Shown here piece by piece: positions 30,838 to 42,070 of a stretch of 42,465 nt of DNA. Origin of the DNA: Candidatus Paralachnospira caecorum (lineage in GTDB: Bacteria > Bacillota > Clostridia > Lachnospirales > Lachnospiraceae); the NCBI GenBank assembly GCA_904379015.1, contig CAJFHG010000021.1, forward strand, positions 1-42,465, in the 5' to 3' direction. The notes beneath the pieces were generated by a model, which saw nothing but the letters and a program-made list of their open reading frames with translations, did not search any database and had not been told where the DNA came from. The position numbers and the translations under genes were made by a program. Every line of letters begins with the position of its first letter. Position 1 is the stretch's first letter.

Positions 30838-30980
30838 AAAAAGCCCGCGTAAGCGGACTCGATCGCATTTGTATCAAATCCTCTTATTGTTCGATCACTC
30901 GCTCAGGTTGGCACCTTCCGCTCAGGGGGTTGCCGTGGCTTCTCAGGTCCTCTGTACCTCCACCACTCTGAATAAGGGAA
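30838..30980 (-). promoter_or_regulatory. SAM-I (S-box) riboswitch with terminator, upstream of metK
   Basis: On the minus strand the aptamer runs 30980-30881: a CTTATTCAGAG...GGTGGAGG start, a GAAGCCACGGCAACC core, GGAAGGTGCCAACC, and GATCGAACAATAAGAG closing P1 (CTTATT with AATAAG). It is followed by a terminator, GTCCGC-TTAC-GCGGGC (30843-30858) with TTTTT (30838-30842). Matches the established SAM-I class; binding SAM should favour the terminator. Confidence 0.95.
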
Positions 30981-36779: not shown

Positions 36780-36879
36780 CCCTTCCCTTCCTCTGTGATT
36801 AGTTTCAGAATCTCCAAAAAGAGGAATGTTTATGCAGGAAATCAAAATAATAACATCATTCAGACAAAGGAGGCAAAAC

Positions 36880-37512
36880 ATGAATCCAACATCCTACGGT
36901 TATATCCGCGTTTCCACAAAAGAACAGCATGAAGACCGCCAGCTGATCGCGCTCCGGGAATTTCCCGTCAGAGAAGACAGGATCTACATGGACAAACTGA
37001 GCGGCAAAAATTTTGACCGGCCCCAGTACCGGAAGCTGATCCGAAGACTCAGTCCGGGCGATGTGCTGGTCATAAAGGCGATCGACAGACTGGGAAGAAA
37101 CTATGACGACATCCAGGAGCAGTGGAGGATCATCACAAAAGAGATCCGGGCCGACATCGTTGTGCTTGACATGCCCCTCCTGGACACCCGGAAAAAGGGA
37201 CGGGACCTGACAGGAACCTTTATCTCGGACATGGTTCTTCAGATTCTCAGCTATGTGGCCCAGATCGAGCGGGAAAACATCCGCTCCAGGCAGGCCGAAG
37301 GCATCGCGGCCGCGAAAGCAAAGGGAATCCGGTTCGGCCGGAGCCGGAAAGAAATCCCGGACCAGTTTACAGGGCTCTACAGGAGCTACCGGGAAGGAAG
37401 CATTTCCGCCAGGGCGGCCGCCAGACTCCCCGGCATTTCCCACAGCACCTTCCTGCGCTGGGGAAACGCGGGGGACGGCGCCGAAAAAGAACGGACGGAT
37501 TCTGGTCTGTAA
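36880..37512 (+). CDS. Small serine recombinase (resolvase/invertase type)
   Basis: A 210-aa site-specific recombinase. The catalytic serine is in SYGYIRVSTKEQHEDRQ, and the resolvase arginine region LVIKAIDRLGRNYDDI follows; a C-terminal helix-turn-helix (ISARAAARLPGISHSTFLRW) would bind DNA. Length fits Tn3-type resolvases. ATG at 36880 is preceded by a strong AAAGGAGG at 6 nt; the frame upstream is not needed. It starts 100 nt from the divergent ywmB gene and precedes tetR. It may be left from a mobile unit or serve an inversion; no partner transposase of the Tn3 kind is nearby. Confidence 0.9.
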   Translation: MNPTSYGYIRVSTKEQHEDRQLIALREFPVREDRIYMDKLSGKNFDRPQYRKLIRRLSPGDVLVIKAIDRLGRNYDDIQEQWRIITKEIRADIVVLDMPLLDTRKKGRDLTGTFISDMVLQILSYVAQIERENIRSRQAEGIAAAKAKGIRFGRSRKEIPDQFTGLYRSYREGSISARAAARLPGISHSTFLRWGNAGDGAEKERTDSGL

Positions 37513-37629
37513 AGTAGACTTTATGATCCACCGGAAATCCAACTGTATTTTCCCGCGGCCGGATGCCCCGGATGCTGAAAATTATTATATCACGGCCGGA
37601 ATATAAAGTCTGATTTATGATCCGCCGGA
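37510..37629. repeat. Two 26-bp direct repeats flanking the tetR promoter region
   Basis: TAAAGT-N4-TTTATGATCCACCGGA (37510-37535) and TAAAGT-N4-TTTATGATCCGCCGGA (37604-37629) agree at 21 of 26 positions; the four mismatches in the N4 and one later. The first contains the perfect palindrome TAAAGT-AG-ACTTTA. The first overlaps the recombinase stop and the second ends 36 nt before the tetR start. They could be TetR operators or recombinase sites. Confidence 0.65.
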
Positions 37630-37665
37630 CAAATACGGCAGAACAGGCTGCAAGGAGGAAAACCA

Positions 37666-38268
37666 TTGAGACTGAGATACGAAAACAGAAAAAGAAAACT
37701 GCTGGAAACAGCCATACATATCGTGGCAGAGGAAGGACTCGGTTCTTTTTCCATGAGAAAGACCACAGAACAGGCCGGCGTGTCTGAGGCCCTGATCTAC
37801 AAGCATTATGAATCAAAGGAAAATCTGCTGCGCGTCTGCTTTGAGACCGTCAGCGGCGAGATCCGCACATTGTTTTCTGGTGTGTCCGCAGAACGGGACA
37901 TCAGTCCCGAAGCGCTTCCCGGTTCCGTACACGCGCTCTGGACGCGCATCTTTTCCTTTTTTATCAGCAGCGGCGGACACGCGCTCTTTTATTTTGAATA
38001 TCTGAATTCCAGGTATTCCGGCGGAGAGCTCCCGTTCTGGCTTCCGCTCCTGCTTCCTTCTGCCGCGGCTTCCCGCTTCCAGGACCCGGTTCTTTTATGG
38101 GACTTTATTCTGGACACCACCTGCTGCTTCGCCAGACGGATCATCCAGGGTCAAATACCGGACACACCGGAAATTTACGACACAGTATGGAAACTGATTT
38201 CCTCCGGAATTTTCACTCCGCGCACTGTGAGAATTCCCGGCGCCGCCGGCCGTTTCAGCGCAAAATAA
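37666..38268 (+). CDS. TetR/AcrR-family transcriptional regulator
   Basis: A 200-aa regulator with a TetR helix-turn-helix at the N-terminus (KLLETAIHIVAEEGLGSFSMRKTTEQAGVSEALIYKHYESKENLL) and a diverged all-helical ligand domain. Start is TTG at 37666, with AAGGAGG 7 nt ahead; no closer ATG fits. Genes of this kind next to ABC exporters usually repress them and sense the transported compound. The neighbouring ABC genes start 380 nt downstream in the same direction. Confidence 0.85.
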   Translation: MRLRYENRKRKLLETAIHIVAEEGLGSFSMRKTTEQAGVSEALIYKHYESKENLLRVCFETVSGEIRTLFSGVSAERDISPEALPGSVHALWTRIFSFFISSGGHALFYFEYLNSRYSGGELPFWLPLLLPSAAASRFQDPVLLWDFILDTTCCFARRIIQGQIPDTPEIYDTVWKLISSGIFTPRTVRIPGAAGRFSAK

Positions 38269-38312
38269 TTTTACCAGGAGCCGGATCCCGGAAAAATTTT
38301 TTAAAATTGCTT

Positions 38313-38341
38313 TTGAAATTTTTCGATTTCAGCTGTATAAT
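38313..38341 (+). promoter_or_regulatory. Promoter of the ABC exporter operon
   Basis: TTGAAA (38313-38318), 17-bp spacer ending TG, and perfect TATAAT (38336-38341). Transcription would start about 38348, about 300 nt before the first exporter gene. Confidence 0.8.
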
Positions 38342-38373
38342 CCTATTATCAACTGAACAGAACTGCTTAATCT

Positions 38374-38418
38374 ACGATACAAGAGCACTGCCTCTGATAC
38401 GATACAGGAGCAATTGCC
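38374..38418 (+). repeat. Paired leader repeats
   Basis: ACGATACAAGAGCACTGCC (38374-38392) and ACGATACAGGAGCAATTGCC (38399-38418) are near copies. The second supplies the 5' arm of the first terminator; the first could pair instead with the same TTGTATCGT arm and so act as an antiterminator partner. Confidence 0.6.
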
Positions 38419-38434
38419 TTTTGTATCGTTTTTT
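38399..38434 (+). terminator. First terminator in the exporter leader
   Basis: ACGATACA (38399-38406) pairs with TGTATCGT (38422-38429), with inner AGG/CCT; followed by six T. Confidence 0.75.
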
Positions 38435-38466
38435 GCGCGTACCGAAAGGTAGGCGCTATTTTTTTT
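38435..38466 (+). terminator. Second terminator in the exporter leader
   Basis: GCGC(G)TACC, loop GAAA (38444-38447), GGTA(G)GCGC, then TA and eight T (38459-38466). It starts directly where the first T run ends. Confidence 0.85.
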
Positions 38467-38649
38467 CGCGACACGCCCGGAAAGGCGCTGTGTGCCGGCG
38501 GCACGCATTCAGCGCCGGCCGGAGCGGAGCGAAGACCCGCCGTGCCTGCACGGGGCAGGCATCCGACGGACCGCTGCCATCAGGCGGCAATGCCGCTTAA
38601 GGGCGCTGCCGCCATAAAATAAACATCAAAAAAGAAAGAAGGTTTACAC

Positions 38650-40209
38650 ATGGTCAAAAAAATTCCGGGCTGCCTGCAGGAATACCGGGCAGCCGCCATC
38701 GCAACCATCATACTGACCGGACTGAAAACACTGCTGGAAATCATCGTTCCCTTTCTGCAGGCGGACATCATTGACAGGGGAATCTACGGCGGAGACCGCA
38801 GCGCTCTGGTCTCCACCGCATGGATCATGATCGGCTGTGTCGCCCTGGCCCTGGTATTCGGCCTGACTGCCAGCCGAACCGCTTCCGCCGCCTCCGGCGT
38901 AGCCCGGAACATGAGAACGGATATGTACAACAATATCCAGGATTTCTCCTTTGCCAACATTGACAAATTCTCAAGTGCCGGCCTCGTCACCCGTCTGACC
39001 ACCGATGTGATGAACATTCAGAATGCCTTCATGATGGTCATCCGCGTAGCAGTGCGCGCCCCTCTCATGATCGTTTTCGCCCTGATCATGGCTTTTGCGA
39101 TCAGTCCGCGGATCGCTTCCATGTATCTGCTGCTGATCCCCATCCTGGGCATCGCGCTGGCCGGCCTGATCCTGTACGCGAAACGGTATTTTGAAAAGGT
39201 ATTCGCCCAGTACGACAGGCTCAATCAGGTCGTACAGGAAAACCTAAGCGGCATCCGCGTCGTGAAAGGATTCTCCAGAGAGGAATATGAAAAGGAAAAG
39301 TTCCAGAACACCTCCACCGCCCTGTACAAAATCTTTAAAAAGGCGGAGGGCGTCATGGCTTACTCCTCCCCGGTCATGCAGCTGGTGGTGTATGCCTGCC
39401 TCCTGCTCATTTACTGGGTGGGCGCCGCCATGATCGTAGACAGCCGCAGCACCGTCCAGAACGGCGAGATCATATTCGACGGCGTATCCTTCCATTATTT
39501 CAGGGACAAAACCGGCGAATGCATTCACAATGTCAGCCTGGTCATCCCCTCCGGTTCGACAGTGGGCATCATCGGCGCCACCGGCGCCGGAAAAAGCAGT
39601 CTGGTGCAGCTGATCCCCCGTCTCTATGACGCGACCGCCGGAAAGGTCCTGGTCGGCGGCGTGGATGTAAAGGACTATAAACTGGACACCATCCGGAACG
39701 CCGTTTCCATGGTGCTGCAGAAAAATCTGCTGTTTTCCGGAACCATCAAAGAAAATCTCCGATGGGGCGACGAGAACGCCTCCGATGAGGAGCTGGTCCG
39801 CGCCTGCCGGCTGGCCCAGGCCGATGAATTCATCAGCCAGTTTCCCGATGGCTACGACACTTACATTGAACAGGGCGGAACCAATGTGTCCGGCGGCCAG
39901 AAGCAGCGGCTCTGTATTGCCCGCGCGCTGCTCAAAAAGCCCAAAATCCTGATCCTGGACGATTCCACCAGCGCGGTGGACACCAGAACAGATGCCCTGA
40001 TCCGGAAAGCGTTCCGGGAAGAAATCCCGGATACAACCAAGCTGATCATCGCCCAGCGCATCACCTCCGTGGAGGATGCCGATTTTACCATTGTTCTGAA
40101 GGACGGACGCATCGACGGCGTCGGAAATCATGCTTATTTGCTGGAACACAATGAAATTTACCGGGACATTTACACATCTCAGCAGCAGGGAGGGAAAGCA
40201 AATGAATAA
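38650..40209 (+). CDS. ABC exporter half, degenerate-site type, with internal deletion
   Basis: A 519-aa fused membrane/ATPase protein. Membrane helices cover about residues 10-260; the ATPase part has Walker A GATGAGKSS at 309-317, signature NVSGGQKQRLCIARALL, and Walker B ILILDDSTSAVD (Asp437, with Asp438 in place of the catalytic Glu) and switch QR instead of HR (IIAQRITSV). These changes mark the non-catalytic site of heterodimeric exporters of the TM287/BmrC type. Between residues 264 and 268 (DSRS then TVQNGEI) about 60 residues usually forming helix 6 and the linker are absent, so the usual length (about 580) is not reached. Its stop overlaps the next start by 8 nt. Confidence 0.85.
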   Translation: MVKKIPGCLQEYRAAAIATIILTGLKTLLEIIVPFLQADIIDRGIYGGDRSALVSTAWIMIGCVALALVFGLTASRTASAASGVARNMRTDMYNNIQDFSFANIDKFSSAGLVTRLTTDVMNIQNAFMMVIRVAVRAPLMIVFALIMAFAISPRIASMYLLLIPILGIALAGLILYAKRYFEKVFAQYDRLNQVVQENLSGIRVVKGFSREEYEKEKFQNTSTALYKIFKKAEGVMAYSSPVMQLVVYACLLLIYWVGAAMIVDSRSTVQNGEIIFDGVSFHYFRDKTGECIHNVSLVIPSGSTVGIIGATGAGKSSLVQLIPRLYDATAGKVLVGGVDVKDYKLDTIRNAVSMVLQKNLLFSGTIKENLRWGDENASDEELVRACRLAQADEFISQFPDGYDTYIEQGGTNVSGGQKQRLCIARALLKKPKILILDDSTSAVDTRTDALIRKAFREEIPDTTKLIIAQRITSVEDADFTIVLKDGRIDGVGNHAYLLEHNEIYRDIYTSQQQGGKANE

Positions 40210-42070
40210 AACAAATAAAAGAAGCGGCACACTGAGGCGTCTGCTCTCCTACATCGTCCGCAATTCCAGATGGATGTTCGCGGTTGTCTGCATCGCGGTC
40301 GTTCTTTCCACCGCCGCCAGCGTTCTGGGTTCGATGCTCACCCAGGTGGTCATCGACGATTATATCACGCCCCTTCTGACAGCCGGAAATCCTGATTATT
40401 CCGGCCTGAGGAACGCCATTCTCGGCATGGGCTGCATTTACCTGATCGGCGTAATCTGCACGTTCCTGTACAACCGTCTCATGGTGACGATCTCCCAGGG
40501 CTGCCTGAAGCACATCCGAGATGACATGTTTTACCATATGCAGAGCCTTCCCATCTCCTATTTTGATACCCATACCCACGGAGATGTGATGAGCCATTAC
40601 ACCAATGATACGGATACGCTCCGCCAGTTCATCAGCAACGCCCTTGCCCAGCTCATTGCCTGCCTCATCACGGCGCTGGCTTCTTTCATTGTCATGATCT
40701 GCTACAGCCGGGCGCTTGCCCTGATCGTCATTGCCGTCACCGTGATCGACGTTTTCATCACCCTGATCGTTTCGAGGAAAAGCGTCCGCTGTTTCTCCGG
40801 ACAGCAGACATCCATGGCCGCCATGAACGGCTATATTGAAGAAATGCTGAACGGCCAGAAGGTGATCAAAATCTTCTGCCACGAAAAGCAGTCCAAAAAC
40901 GGCTTTCAGGAGAAAAACACGGCGCTGTTCGAGAGCTCCCGGTCAGCCAACACGCTTGCCAACCTGATCATGCCGGTGCTGGGACAGATCGGAAATCTGC
41001 TGACCGTTCTGATCGCGTTCATCGGGGGAATCCTGATCCTGAACGGAAGCACCGCGCTCACCGCCGGCATTGTCGTGGCATTCTTGTCTCTGTCAAAATC
41101 CTTTGCCAATCCGATCCAGCAGGTCGGACAGCAGATCAGCCTGATCACGATGGCAATGGCAGGCGCCAGGCGTATTTTTGCCCTTCTGGACGAAGAACCG
41201 GAATTTGACGAAGGGTATGTGACCCTCGTCAACGCCCGGAAAAACGCCGACGGCACGCTGACAGAGTGCCCGGAGCGGACCGGCCTGTTTGCCTGGAAGC
41301 ATCCCCATCATGACGGCACGCTGACCTACACGGAACTAAAGGGCGACATCCGGATGTTTGATGTGGATTTCGGCTATGTTCCCGACAAGATCGTTCTGCA
41401 CAACATCACCCTTTACGCGGAGCCCGGGCAGAAGCTGGCCTTCGTCGGCGCCACCGGCGCCGGGAAAACGACCATCACCAACCTGCTCAACCGTTTTTAT
41501 GATATCGCGGACGGGAAGATCCGCTACGACGGCATCAACATCAACAAGATCCGGAAAAGCGATCTGCGCCGTTCCATCGGCCTTGTCCTCCAGGATACGA
41601 GCCTGTTCACAGAAACTGTCCTGGAAAACATCCGGTACGGACGGCCGGACGCCACGGATGACGAGTGCATCGAAGCGGCAAAGCTGGCCGGCGCGGATTC
41701 CTTTATTTCCAATCTGCCCCACGGCTACCACACCGTTCTGATGAACGCAGGCGCGGCCCTGAGCCAGGGCCAGCGGCAGCTTCTGAACATTGCCCGCGCC
41801 GTGGCCGCCAATCCGCCCTGCATGGTGCTGGATGAAGCCACCTCCTCCATCGACACCAGAACCGAACGCATTGTGCAGGAGGGCATGGATGCCCTGATGA
41901 AGGGACGGACCTCCTTTGTGATCGCCCACCGGCTTTCCACCATCCGCAACTCCGATGTGATCATGGTCCTGGACCACGGACGAATCATCGAGCGGGGCTC
42001 CCACGAAAAACTGATTGAAGACAAGGGTGTCTATTATCAGCTCTATACCGGCGCCTTTGAACTGGAATAA
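40202..42070 (+). CDS. ABC exporter half, catalytic type
   Basis: A 622-aa fused ABC exporter, partner of the preceding one. Six membrane helices span about residues 15-320; the ATPase has Walker A GATGAGKTT (416-424), signature ALSQGQRQLLNIARAV, Walker B MVLDEATSSID (Asp544, catalytic Glu545) and switch IAHRLST. Between membrane and ATPase parts lies a longer insertion (residues about 340-375: ARKNADGTLTECPERTG). GGAGGG is 7 nt before the ATG at 40202. With the degenerate-site partner it should make one normal ATP site; drug export is the common role. Ends 6 nt before the IS66-like frame opens. Confidence 0.92.
   Translation: MNKTNKRSGTLRRLLSYIVRNSRWMFAVVCIAVVLSTAASVLGSMLTQVVIDDYITPLLTAGNPDYSGLRNAILGMGCIYLIGVICTFLYNRLMVTISQGCLKHIRDDMFYHMQSLPISYFDTHTHGDVMSHYTNDTDTLRQFISNALAQLIACLITALASFIVMICYSRALALIVIAVTVIDVFITLIVSRKSVRCFSGQQTSMAAMNGYIEEMLNGQKVIKIFCHEKQSKNGFQEKNTALFESSRSANTLANLIMPVLGQIGNLLTVLIAFIGGILILNGSTALTAGIVVAFLSLSKSFANPIQQVGQQISLITMAMAGARRIFALLDEEPEFDEGYVTLVNARKNADGTLTECPERTGLFAWKHPHHDGTLTYTELKGDIRMFDVDFGYVPDKIVLHNITLYAEPGQKLAFVGATGAGKTTITNLLNRFYDIADGKIRYDGININKIRKSDLRRSIGLVLQDTSLFTETVLENIRYGRPDATDDECIEAAKLAGADSFISNLPHGYHTVLMNAGAALSQGQRQLLNIARAVAANPPCMVLDEATSSIDTRTERIVQEGMDALMKGRTSFVIAHRLSTIRNSDVIMVLDHGRIIERGSHEKLIEDKGVYYQLYTGAFELE

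What the first reader, a model, noticed from the sequence alone, without database searches (positions are those of the whole stretch)
38348..38640. Structured leader with two tandem terminators before an ABC exporter operon
Seen: a strong promoter, two near-copy repeats, two adjacent intrinsic terminators with T runs, then GC-rich hairpins with mutually exclusive pairings reaching the ribosome binding site; no leader peptide ATG. The first repeat could pair with the closing arm of terminator 1. Known: drug exporter genes in Firmicutes are often controlled by premature termination. I do not recognise this RNA as a named class. Inference: a ligand-sensing or ribosome-linked attenuator working beside the TetR repressor.
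Basis: partly seen in the sequence, partly recalled or inferred. Interest (0 to 1): 0.72.

Follow-up and report, generated by a model that had tools for sequence, protein, structure and literature searches.

The report
Coupled double-terminator switch before exporters
A short RNA leader in front of a predicted drug-pump operon appears able to stop transcription at two successive terminators that one alternative hairpin could disable together; relatives of it sit in front of two unrelated kinds of pump, but the signal that flips it is unknown.

Summary
The tandem-terminator leader is real, but only about 96 nt (38371-38466) are the device. This cassette (R1, R2, R', T2) recurs at 8 other accepted loci: before the same ABC exporter in three relatives (one lacks T2) and at five MATE-type loci (one has lost the MATE gene). 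Among the four ABC loci the T1 part is 77-87% identical per longer sequence (29-40% after shuffling); flanks are mostly near shuffled level. The GC-rich hairpins (about 38456-38595) are a dispersed repeat with 7 other places in the genome, absent from the relatives' leaders.

New here: the 3' arm of terminator 1 can pair instead with the 5' arm and loop of terminator 2 (13 pairs; 78 of 78 cells in six sequences; one compensatory change). The layout is trp-like 1-2-3-4, with 1:2 and 3:4 both terminators and 2:3 a shared antiterminator. No conserved leader peptide, no shared neighbouring regulator seen, no Rfam match. That something masks R1/R2 is inferred; the agent is unknown. The window copy may be decaying: repeat insertion, a T2 mismatch, and 61 residues missing in frame from the first ABC protein.

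The parts
38313..38341 (+). promoter, TTGAAA-17-TATAAT
   Evidence: 11 of 12 consensus letters; in 9 of 9 loci the best promoter-like match ends 25-32 nt before R1, although ties were scored in favour of a 17-nt spacer and L016 (225 of 300 shuffles as good), L015 (58) and L166 (49) are weak
38374..38385 (+). R1, region 1: 5' arm of terminator 1
   Evidence: Pairs with R' in the window fold; core ACGATACA kept in 8 of 9 loci (L166 has ACAATACA)
38394..38410 (+). R2: inner hairpin CTG-ATACGATA-CAG and second copy of R1
   Evidence: GATACGAWAC present in all 8 distinct cassettes; R2 can replace R1 in pairing with R' in the ABC loci
38417..38434 (+). R', region 2: 3' arm of terminator 1, then T run
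   Evidence: also the 5' side of the antiterminator
38435..38449 (+). region 3: 5' arm and loop of terminator 2
   Evidence: Pairs with R' in all six aligned sequences that have it (L149 lacks it; L167, not in that alignment, does not keep the pairing) and with region 4
38448..38467 (+). region 4: 3' arm of terminator 2, then T run
   Evidence: the window has a G.G mismatch in this stem
38456..38595 (+). dispersed GC-rich repeat inserted behind terminator 2
   Evidence: 7 other places in the own genome, union of query 157-296; 5 in G008
38636..38642 (+). ribosome binding site (AAGAAGG) of the first ABC gene
   Evidence: Read
38650..40209 (+). first ABC exporter half, 519 aa, lacking 61 residues present in L015 and L016
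   Evidence: Pfam ABC_membrane and ABC_tran; alignment
40202..42070 (+). second ABC exporter half; start at 40202 chosen by eye, the mechanical ORF begins at 40130
37666..38268 (+). TetR-type regulator gene; neighbour, not shown to belong to the device
   Evidence: Pfam TetR_N

Best explanation
A cis-acting transcription attenuator with two coupled terminators. Shown by sequence and computation: region 1 (R1, with a second copy R2) pairs with region 2 to make terminator 1; region 3 pairs with region 4 to make terminator 2; regions 2 and 3 can pair with each other instead, which breaks both. Inferred: in the basal state RNA polymerase stops at T1, or at T2 if it passes T1; when something masks R1 and R2 in the nascent RNA, region 2 captures region 3 before region 4 is made and transcription runs on into the exporter gene. 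The masking agent is unknown. Because the R1 core (ACGAUACA) and the R2 loop (GAUACGAWAC) are conserved in sequence, recognition of the RNA by a ligand or by a general RNA-binding factor is my preferred reading.
For: Cassette found at 9 loci, before ABC or MATE genes in 8 of them. T1 part 77-87% identical per longer sequence among four ABC loci against 29-40% after shuffling, more than the start of the ABC gene (69-76%); flanks mostly near shuffled level (five shuffles per pair). In L144 T2 ends about 5 nt before the GGAGG-type binding site and 20 nt before the MATE start, so there is no room for a promoter of its own. Antiterminator: 78 of 78 cells paired in six sequences, 35-56% when slid, one U-A to C-G change that fits only 2:3. 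Shuffling region 3 / region 2 gave as good a fold in 4 / 3 of 1000 (L164), 8 / 8 (L144), 11 / 7 (L166), 16 / 2 (L015), 90 / 32 (L016), 123 / 37 (window). Folding with nothing masked gives 1:2 plus 3:4 in 6 of 7 full cassettes; with R1 and R2 masked and region 4 not yet made, 2:3 forms in 7 of 7 (11 pairs in 5, 6 in L016, 3 in L167).
Against: No expression data. The compensatory change is one evolutionary event, and 27 of 500 column shuffles reach the observed covariation; for 1:2, inner and 3:4 helices together 147 of 500 do. The antiterminator is not above chance in L149 (222 / 388 of 1000), which lacks T2, nor in L167 (456 / 374). In the full cassette with R1 and R2 masked, T2 still beats 2:3 in the window, L016 and L167; and with nothing masked but region 4 not yet made, 2:3 already beats 1:2 in L144, L164 and L166, so the default state of the MATE group is less clear. 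The 2:3 structure was found on these same sequences. No signal is known.
Confidence: 0.66

Rival explanations
1. Ribosome-mediated attenuation, as in trp or ermK: a short peptide is translated over region 1, and stalled ribosomes free region 2.
For: The 1-2-3-4 layout is the same. In 3 of 4 ABC loci a start codon upstream of R1 opens a frame that covers R1 and stops at R2 (L015 TTG 11 aa, L016 ATG 11 aa, L149 GTG 12 aa). Attenuators of bmrCD and vmlR respond to ribosome-targeting drugs (passage of PMC5418344).
Against: None of these three starts has a Shine-Dalgarno-like motif; the window and all five MATE-type loci have no frame over R1; peptide sequences are not conserved.
Confidence: 0.13
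2. The ACGATACA repeats are DNA operator half-sites of a repressor (TetR or other), and their hairpin form is secondary.
For: Direct and inverted copies lie just downstream of the promoter; a TetR gene is adjacent in the window.
Against: Spacing between the copies changes among loci; no regulator gene was recognised next to the cassette in L015 or L016; T runs, T2 and the 2:3 pairing are not explained.
Confidence: 0.1
3. Constitutive insulation: two terminators that merely keep the exporter low, or end a small RNA, with no switch.
For: Strong stable terminators; no signal known.
Against: Conserved complementarity of region 2 with region 3 and sequence conservation of the R1 core and R2 loop are not needed for plain terminators; in L144 the gene can only be read by passing both.
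Confidence: 0.11
4. The window copy itself is decaying and no longer regulates a working exporter. This can be true together with the main explanation for the family.
For: Repeat insertion behind T2, G.G mismatch in T2, 61 residues missing in frame from the first ABC half relative to L015 and L016.
Against: Frames are open; R1, R2, R' and all 13 antiterminator pairs are intact; its promoter scores highest of the nine. The gap could be an assembly fault.
Confidence: 0.35

Closest known systems
trp- and ermK-type transcription attenuators
   Same: Regions 1, 2, 3, 4 with an antiterminator 2:3 and a terminator 3:4; for ermK antibiotic stalling favours an antiterminator (passage of PMC5418344)
   Different: Here 1:2 is also a U-run terminator, region 1 is present twice, and no conserved leader peptide was found. 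That ermK too has two terminators is recalled, not from a call
bmrCD and vmlR attenuators of B. subtilis
   Same: Attenuators of ABC resistance genes without dedicated leader peptides (passage of PMC5418344)
   Different: bmrCD depends on translation of bmrB (same passage); no such gene lies before the cassette here. Sequences were not compared
patAB attenuator of S. pneumoniae
   Different: One terminator described there; sequences were not compared
ABC-leaders of Naville and Gautheret 2010
   Same: Antiterminator-forming leaders, one before a multidrug export operon of lactobacilli (PMC2965389 section 9); a tandem terminator is described for some rimP leaders (passage)
   Different: Their alignments are in supplements I could not read; identity not tested

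Membership tests
Transcription attenuator (general kind) | Promoter, then an intrinsic terminator before the gene with no other promoter between | tested here: met
   in L144 T2 abuts the binding site. Promoters between T2 and the ABC gene were looked for only with the scan on the window (none listed there)
Transcription attenuator (general kind) | Mutually exclusive antiterminator | tested here: met
   by computation only, not above chance in L149 and L167
Transcription attenuator (general kind) | Read-through that depends on condition | not testable with these tools
   Needs expression data
Leader-peptide (trp/ermK) attenuator | Leader reading frame over region 1, conserved among relatives | tested here: not met
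   Frame over R1 in 3 of 9 loci, none with a Shine-Dalgarno-like motif
Known Rfam riboswitch or T-box | Covariance-model match | tested here: not met
   No hit at the leader at gathering score; five loci at E<=10 gave only sub-threshold matches
Riboswitch (any) | Direct ligand binding | not testable with these tools
   Needs in-line probing or similar
BglG/SacY-type protein antitermination | RAT hairpin overlapping the terminator and a cognate antiterminator protein | not tested
   No RAT model was searched; definition recalled

The most novel reading that the evidence does not exclude
A new RNA sensor class for exporter substrates: the nascent RNA itself (R1 and the GAUACGAWAC loop) binds a drug-like ligand or metabolite, and one strand exchange then unlocks two terminators at once; the same cassette serves two unrelated exporter families, ABC and MATE, because they share a substrate.
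Probability: 0.22. Interest if true: 0.82.

Novelty: new variant of a known kind. Interest (0 to 1): 0.57.

Why it matters
If true, one antiterminator controls two terminators without a conserved leader peptide, in a cassette of under 100 nt found before two unrelated exporter families. That makes the signal testable with reporters and could point to a substrate shared by both pumps. It also shows how a dispersed repeat can land inside a regulatory leader and be mistaken for part of the switch.

Tried and rejected
(1) GC-rich hairpins as a second switch: rejected, dispersed repeat. (2) A long-range helix closing the leader: strong in L016 (0 of 1000 shuffles), weak in L015 (62) and L149 (222), absent in window (202), L144 (760) and L164 (605); not a class feature. 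(3) Conserved leader peptide: not found; the recurring AFCIVF-like reading over R' follows from the conservation of R'. (4) Weak covariance hits: of the order search (4 of 392 genomes) I kept the window and L144; of the class search (16 of 391) the window and L149; of the family search (6 of 397) the window, L144 and L167; of the family of G642 (5 of 200) L015 and what looks like the L167 place again (L171, same contig coordinates). Dropped: L145, L146, L150-L163, L168-L170, L172-L174. They look like ordinary or tandem terminators without R1/R2; this was judged by eye, and not all were printed as alignments (shown: L145, L146; L150-L156, L158 and L159; L168; L169 and L170 only as sequence; L157, L160-L163 only as table rows; L172-L174 not looked at, taken for duplicates by coordinates). 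(5) Other ABC homologues: the cassette was found in 2 of 80 fetched loci; 78 others gave at most 15.0 bits, but at least 5 of these (L027, L029, L036, L074, L075) hold under 50 nt upstream of the gene and cannot tell. (6) Viral contigs, plasmids and phages: no match; the 7 viral stretches show no R' or T run and were dropped. (7) Enrichment of TACGATACA in the genome: 18 sites against 2 for the reversed pattern; 18 is about what uniform base composition predicts (my arithmetic), so not used. (8) Literature: eight searches of the open PMC library listed nothing that I recognised, from titles and abstract starts, as this element; three papers were opened (PMC2965389: outline with abstract, sections 9 and 17, passages; PMC4319486: passages; PMC5418344: passages).

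Full report
What was checked. The window is contig C21 of a 2.59-Mb genome in 55 contigs. The ABC operon starts at 38650; upstream on the same strand are a TetR gene (37666-38268) and a serine recombinase gene (36826-37512). Rfam lists nothing at the leader at gathering score; its one hit in the window is a SAM riboswitch at 30881-30978, minus strand.

The leader has two parts of different origin. A search of the window's own genome with 38300-38649 found 7 other places, all in the GC-rich part (union of query positions 157-296, window 38456-38595) and none covering R1, R2 or R'. Genome G008 of the same genus gave 5 more places; 9 other genomes of the genus gave none. In 6 of 8 own-genome copies the left end aligned and lies behind a hairpin followed by T-rich sequence; for L006 and L008 the left end did not align, and a similar arrangement is visible by eye. 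The L003 copy lies just behind an M-box riboswitch (Rfam). The stretch is not seen in the leaders of L015, L016 or L149. I take it for a dispersed repeat that landed behind T2.

The other part is a conserved cassette. A scan of genome contigs with the first ABC half kept 80 loci. The two closest, L015 (Ca. Lachnoclostridium avicola, Lachnospiraceae) and L016 (Ca. Avimonas faecium, Clostridia), protein identity 89% and 88%, carry the cassette; no other locus of the 80 exceeded 15.0 bits, though at least five lack upstream sequence. Whole-genome searches with covariance models gave: order, 4 of 392 genomes at E<=0.001; class, 16 of 391 at E<=0.05; family of G954, 1 of 16; genus of G604, 4 of 58; family, 6 of 397 at E<=0.01; family of G642, 5 of 200; family of G643, 1 of 225. 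The draws overlap, and hits that I judged ordinary terminators are listed under Tried and rejected. I accept L149 (ABC), L144, L164, L165 (leader identical to L164) and L167 (MATE), and L166, a MATE-type cassette after which no MATE gene but an insertion-like stretch follows (by eye). Pfam confirms MatE in L144, L165 and L167 and ABC domains in L149. Each of four genomes searched with model R1 at E<=1 held one copy.

The cassette is a bounded unit. Among the four ABC loci the T1 part is 77-87% identical per longer sequence (81-88% over aligned columns), against 29-40% after shuffling. The stretch upstream (29-40% against 26-37%), the promoter stretch (35-51% against 36-46%) and most spacers to the gene (16-51% against 13-29%, the L016/L149 spacer being clearly above) are near shuffled values. 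The first 300 nt of the ABC gene are 69-76% (five shuffles per pair). In 9 of 9 loci the best promoter-like match ends 25-32 nt before R1; ties favoured a 17-nt spacer, and in L016, L015 and L166 the match is weak (225, 58 and 49 of 300 shuffles as good).

Structure. 1:2 (R1 with R') is the predicted fold of T1 at -17.4 to -26.0 kcal/mol in 7 of 8 distinct cassettes; in L166, where the R1 core is changed, it is not. Without R1, R2 pairs with R' at -10.9 to -13.9 in the ABC loci; in L144, L164 and L166 that pairing has an A.A mismatch (-10.0 to -10.5) and in L167 it is lost. T2 keeps GCGCAUAC, ACGCAUAC, GCGCGUAC or ACGCGUAC as 5' arm in all seven cassettes that have it. A reason is that region 3 also pairs with region 2. 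2:3 has 13 pairs; 78 of 78 cells pair in six sequences (L149 has no letters there and L167 was not in that alignment), sliding gives 35-56%, and one pair changes on both sides between ABC (U-A) and MATE (C-G). That change gives A.C in 1:2 and lies in the loop of T2, so only 2:3 accounts for it. It is one event; 27 of 500 column shuffles reach it. For 1:2, inner and 3:4 helices together 147 of 500 shuffles reach the covariation score, because the sequences vary little. Free energies of 2:3 are -9.0 to -10.2 in window, L015 and L016 and -15.1 to -15.7 in L144, L164 and L166; shuffle results, including the negative ones for L149 and L167, are given under Best explanation.

Energetics. With nothing masked the full cassette folds as 1:2 plus 3:4 in 6 of 7 tested (L149 was not tested; L166 folds as 2:3). 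With R1 and R2 masked and region 4 not yet made, 2:3 appears in 7 of 7 (11 pairs in 5, 6 in L016, 3 in L167). With region 4 present and R1 and R2 masked, 2:3 persists in L015, L144, L164 and L166 and yields to T2 in the window, L016 and L167. Against a simple default-off view, with nothing masked and region 4 not yet made 2:3 already wins in L144, L164 and L166. So the switch looks close to bistable in the MATE group, where T1 would have to act before region 3 is made, and would have to be kinetic in most of the ABC group.

Mechanism, shown and inferred. Shown by sequence and computation: the parts, their conservation, the exclusive pairings. Inferred: that T1 and T2 terminate in the cell, that 2:3 gives read-through, and that something masks R1 and R2. 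A frame over R1 exists in 3 of 9 loci (L015, L016, L149), none with a Shine-Dalgarno-like motif, and I recognised no shared neighbouring regulator, so a ligand or a general RNA-binding factor is my preferred agent. Which one is open.

State of the window copy. T2 has a G.G mismatch, the repeat lies between T2 and the gene, and the first ABC half lacks 61 residues that both close relatives have, 1 near residue 79 and 60 between residues 268 and 269. Frames are open. This is description only; an assembly fault is possible.

Known kinds. The layout is that of trp-type attenuators (recalled), and attenuators of ABC resistance genes are known: bmrCD, vmlR, lmo0919 and ermK-type antitermination (passages of PMC5418344), patAB (passages of PMC4319486) and ABC-leaders (PMC2965389: abstract, sections 9 and 17 and passages). 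In the searches listed I saw no description of this cassette, of its presence before both ABC and MATE genes, or of two terminators coupled by one antiterminator without a leader peptide. The library holds open-access papers only, so this is weak evidence of absence.

Noticed in passing
window 38456-38595; L002-L008 (own genome), L010-L014 (G008): A GC-rich dispersed repeat of about 110-140 bp that lies directly behind intrinsic terminators in 6 of 8 own-genome copies by alignment and in the other 2 by eye; the L003 copy follows an M-box riboswitch. It may be an element that targets terminators.
   Followed up: partly
window about 39453: The first ABC half lacks 60 residues in frame (transmembrane/linker part) relative to L015 and L016, plus one residue near position 79.
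   Followed up: partly
window 37513-37635: Two imperfect copies of a stretch like AAAGTnnGAnTTTATGATCCnCCGGA lie upstream of the TetR gene (seen by eye); possible TetR operators.
   Followed up: no
window 30881-30978, minus strand: SAM riboswitch (RF00162), 65.4 bits.
   Followed up: no
L166: 1501-3099: A MATE-type cassette followed not by a MATE gene but by a stretch with a transposase-like ORF on the other strand (by eye); here the R1 core is changed and 2:3 is the predicted ground state.
   Followed up: partly
L016: about 2803-2814 and 2922-2933: A 12-bp inverted repeat (ATATGACTCCGC/GCGGAGTCATAT) encloses the cassette; 0 of 1000 shuffles as good, but not a feature of the class.
   Followed up: partly
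L015, L016, L149 leaders: Short frames of 11-12 codons that cover R1 and stop at the UGA of the R2 loop, without Shine-Dalgarno-like motifs; absent from the window and the MATE-type loci.
   Followed up: partly
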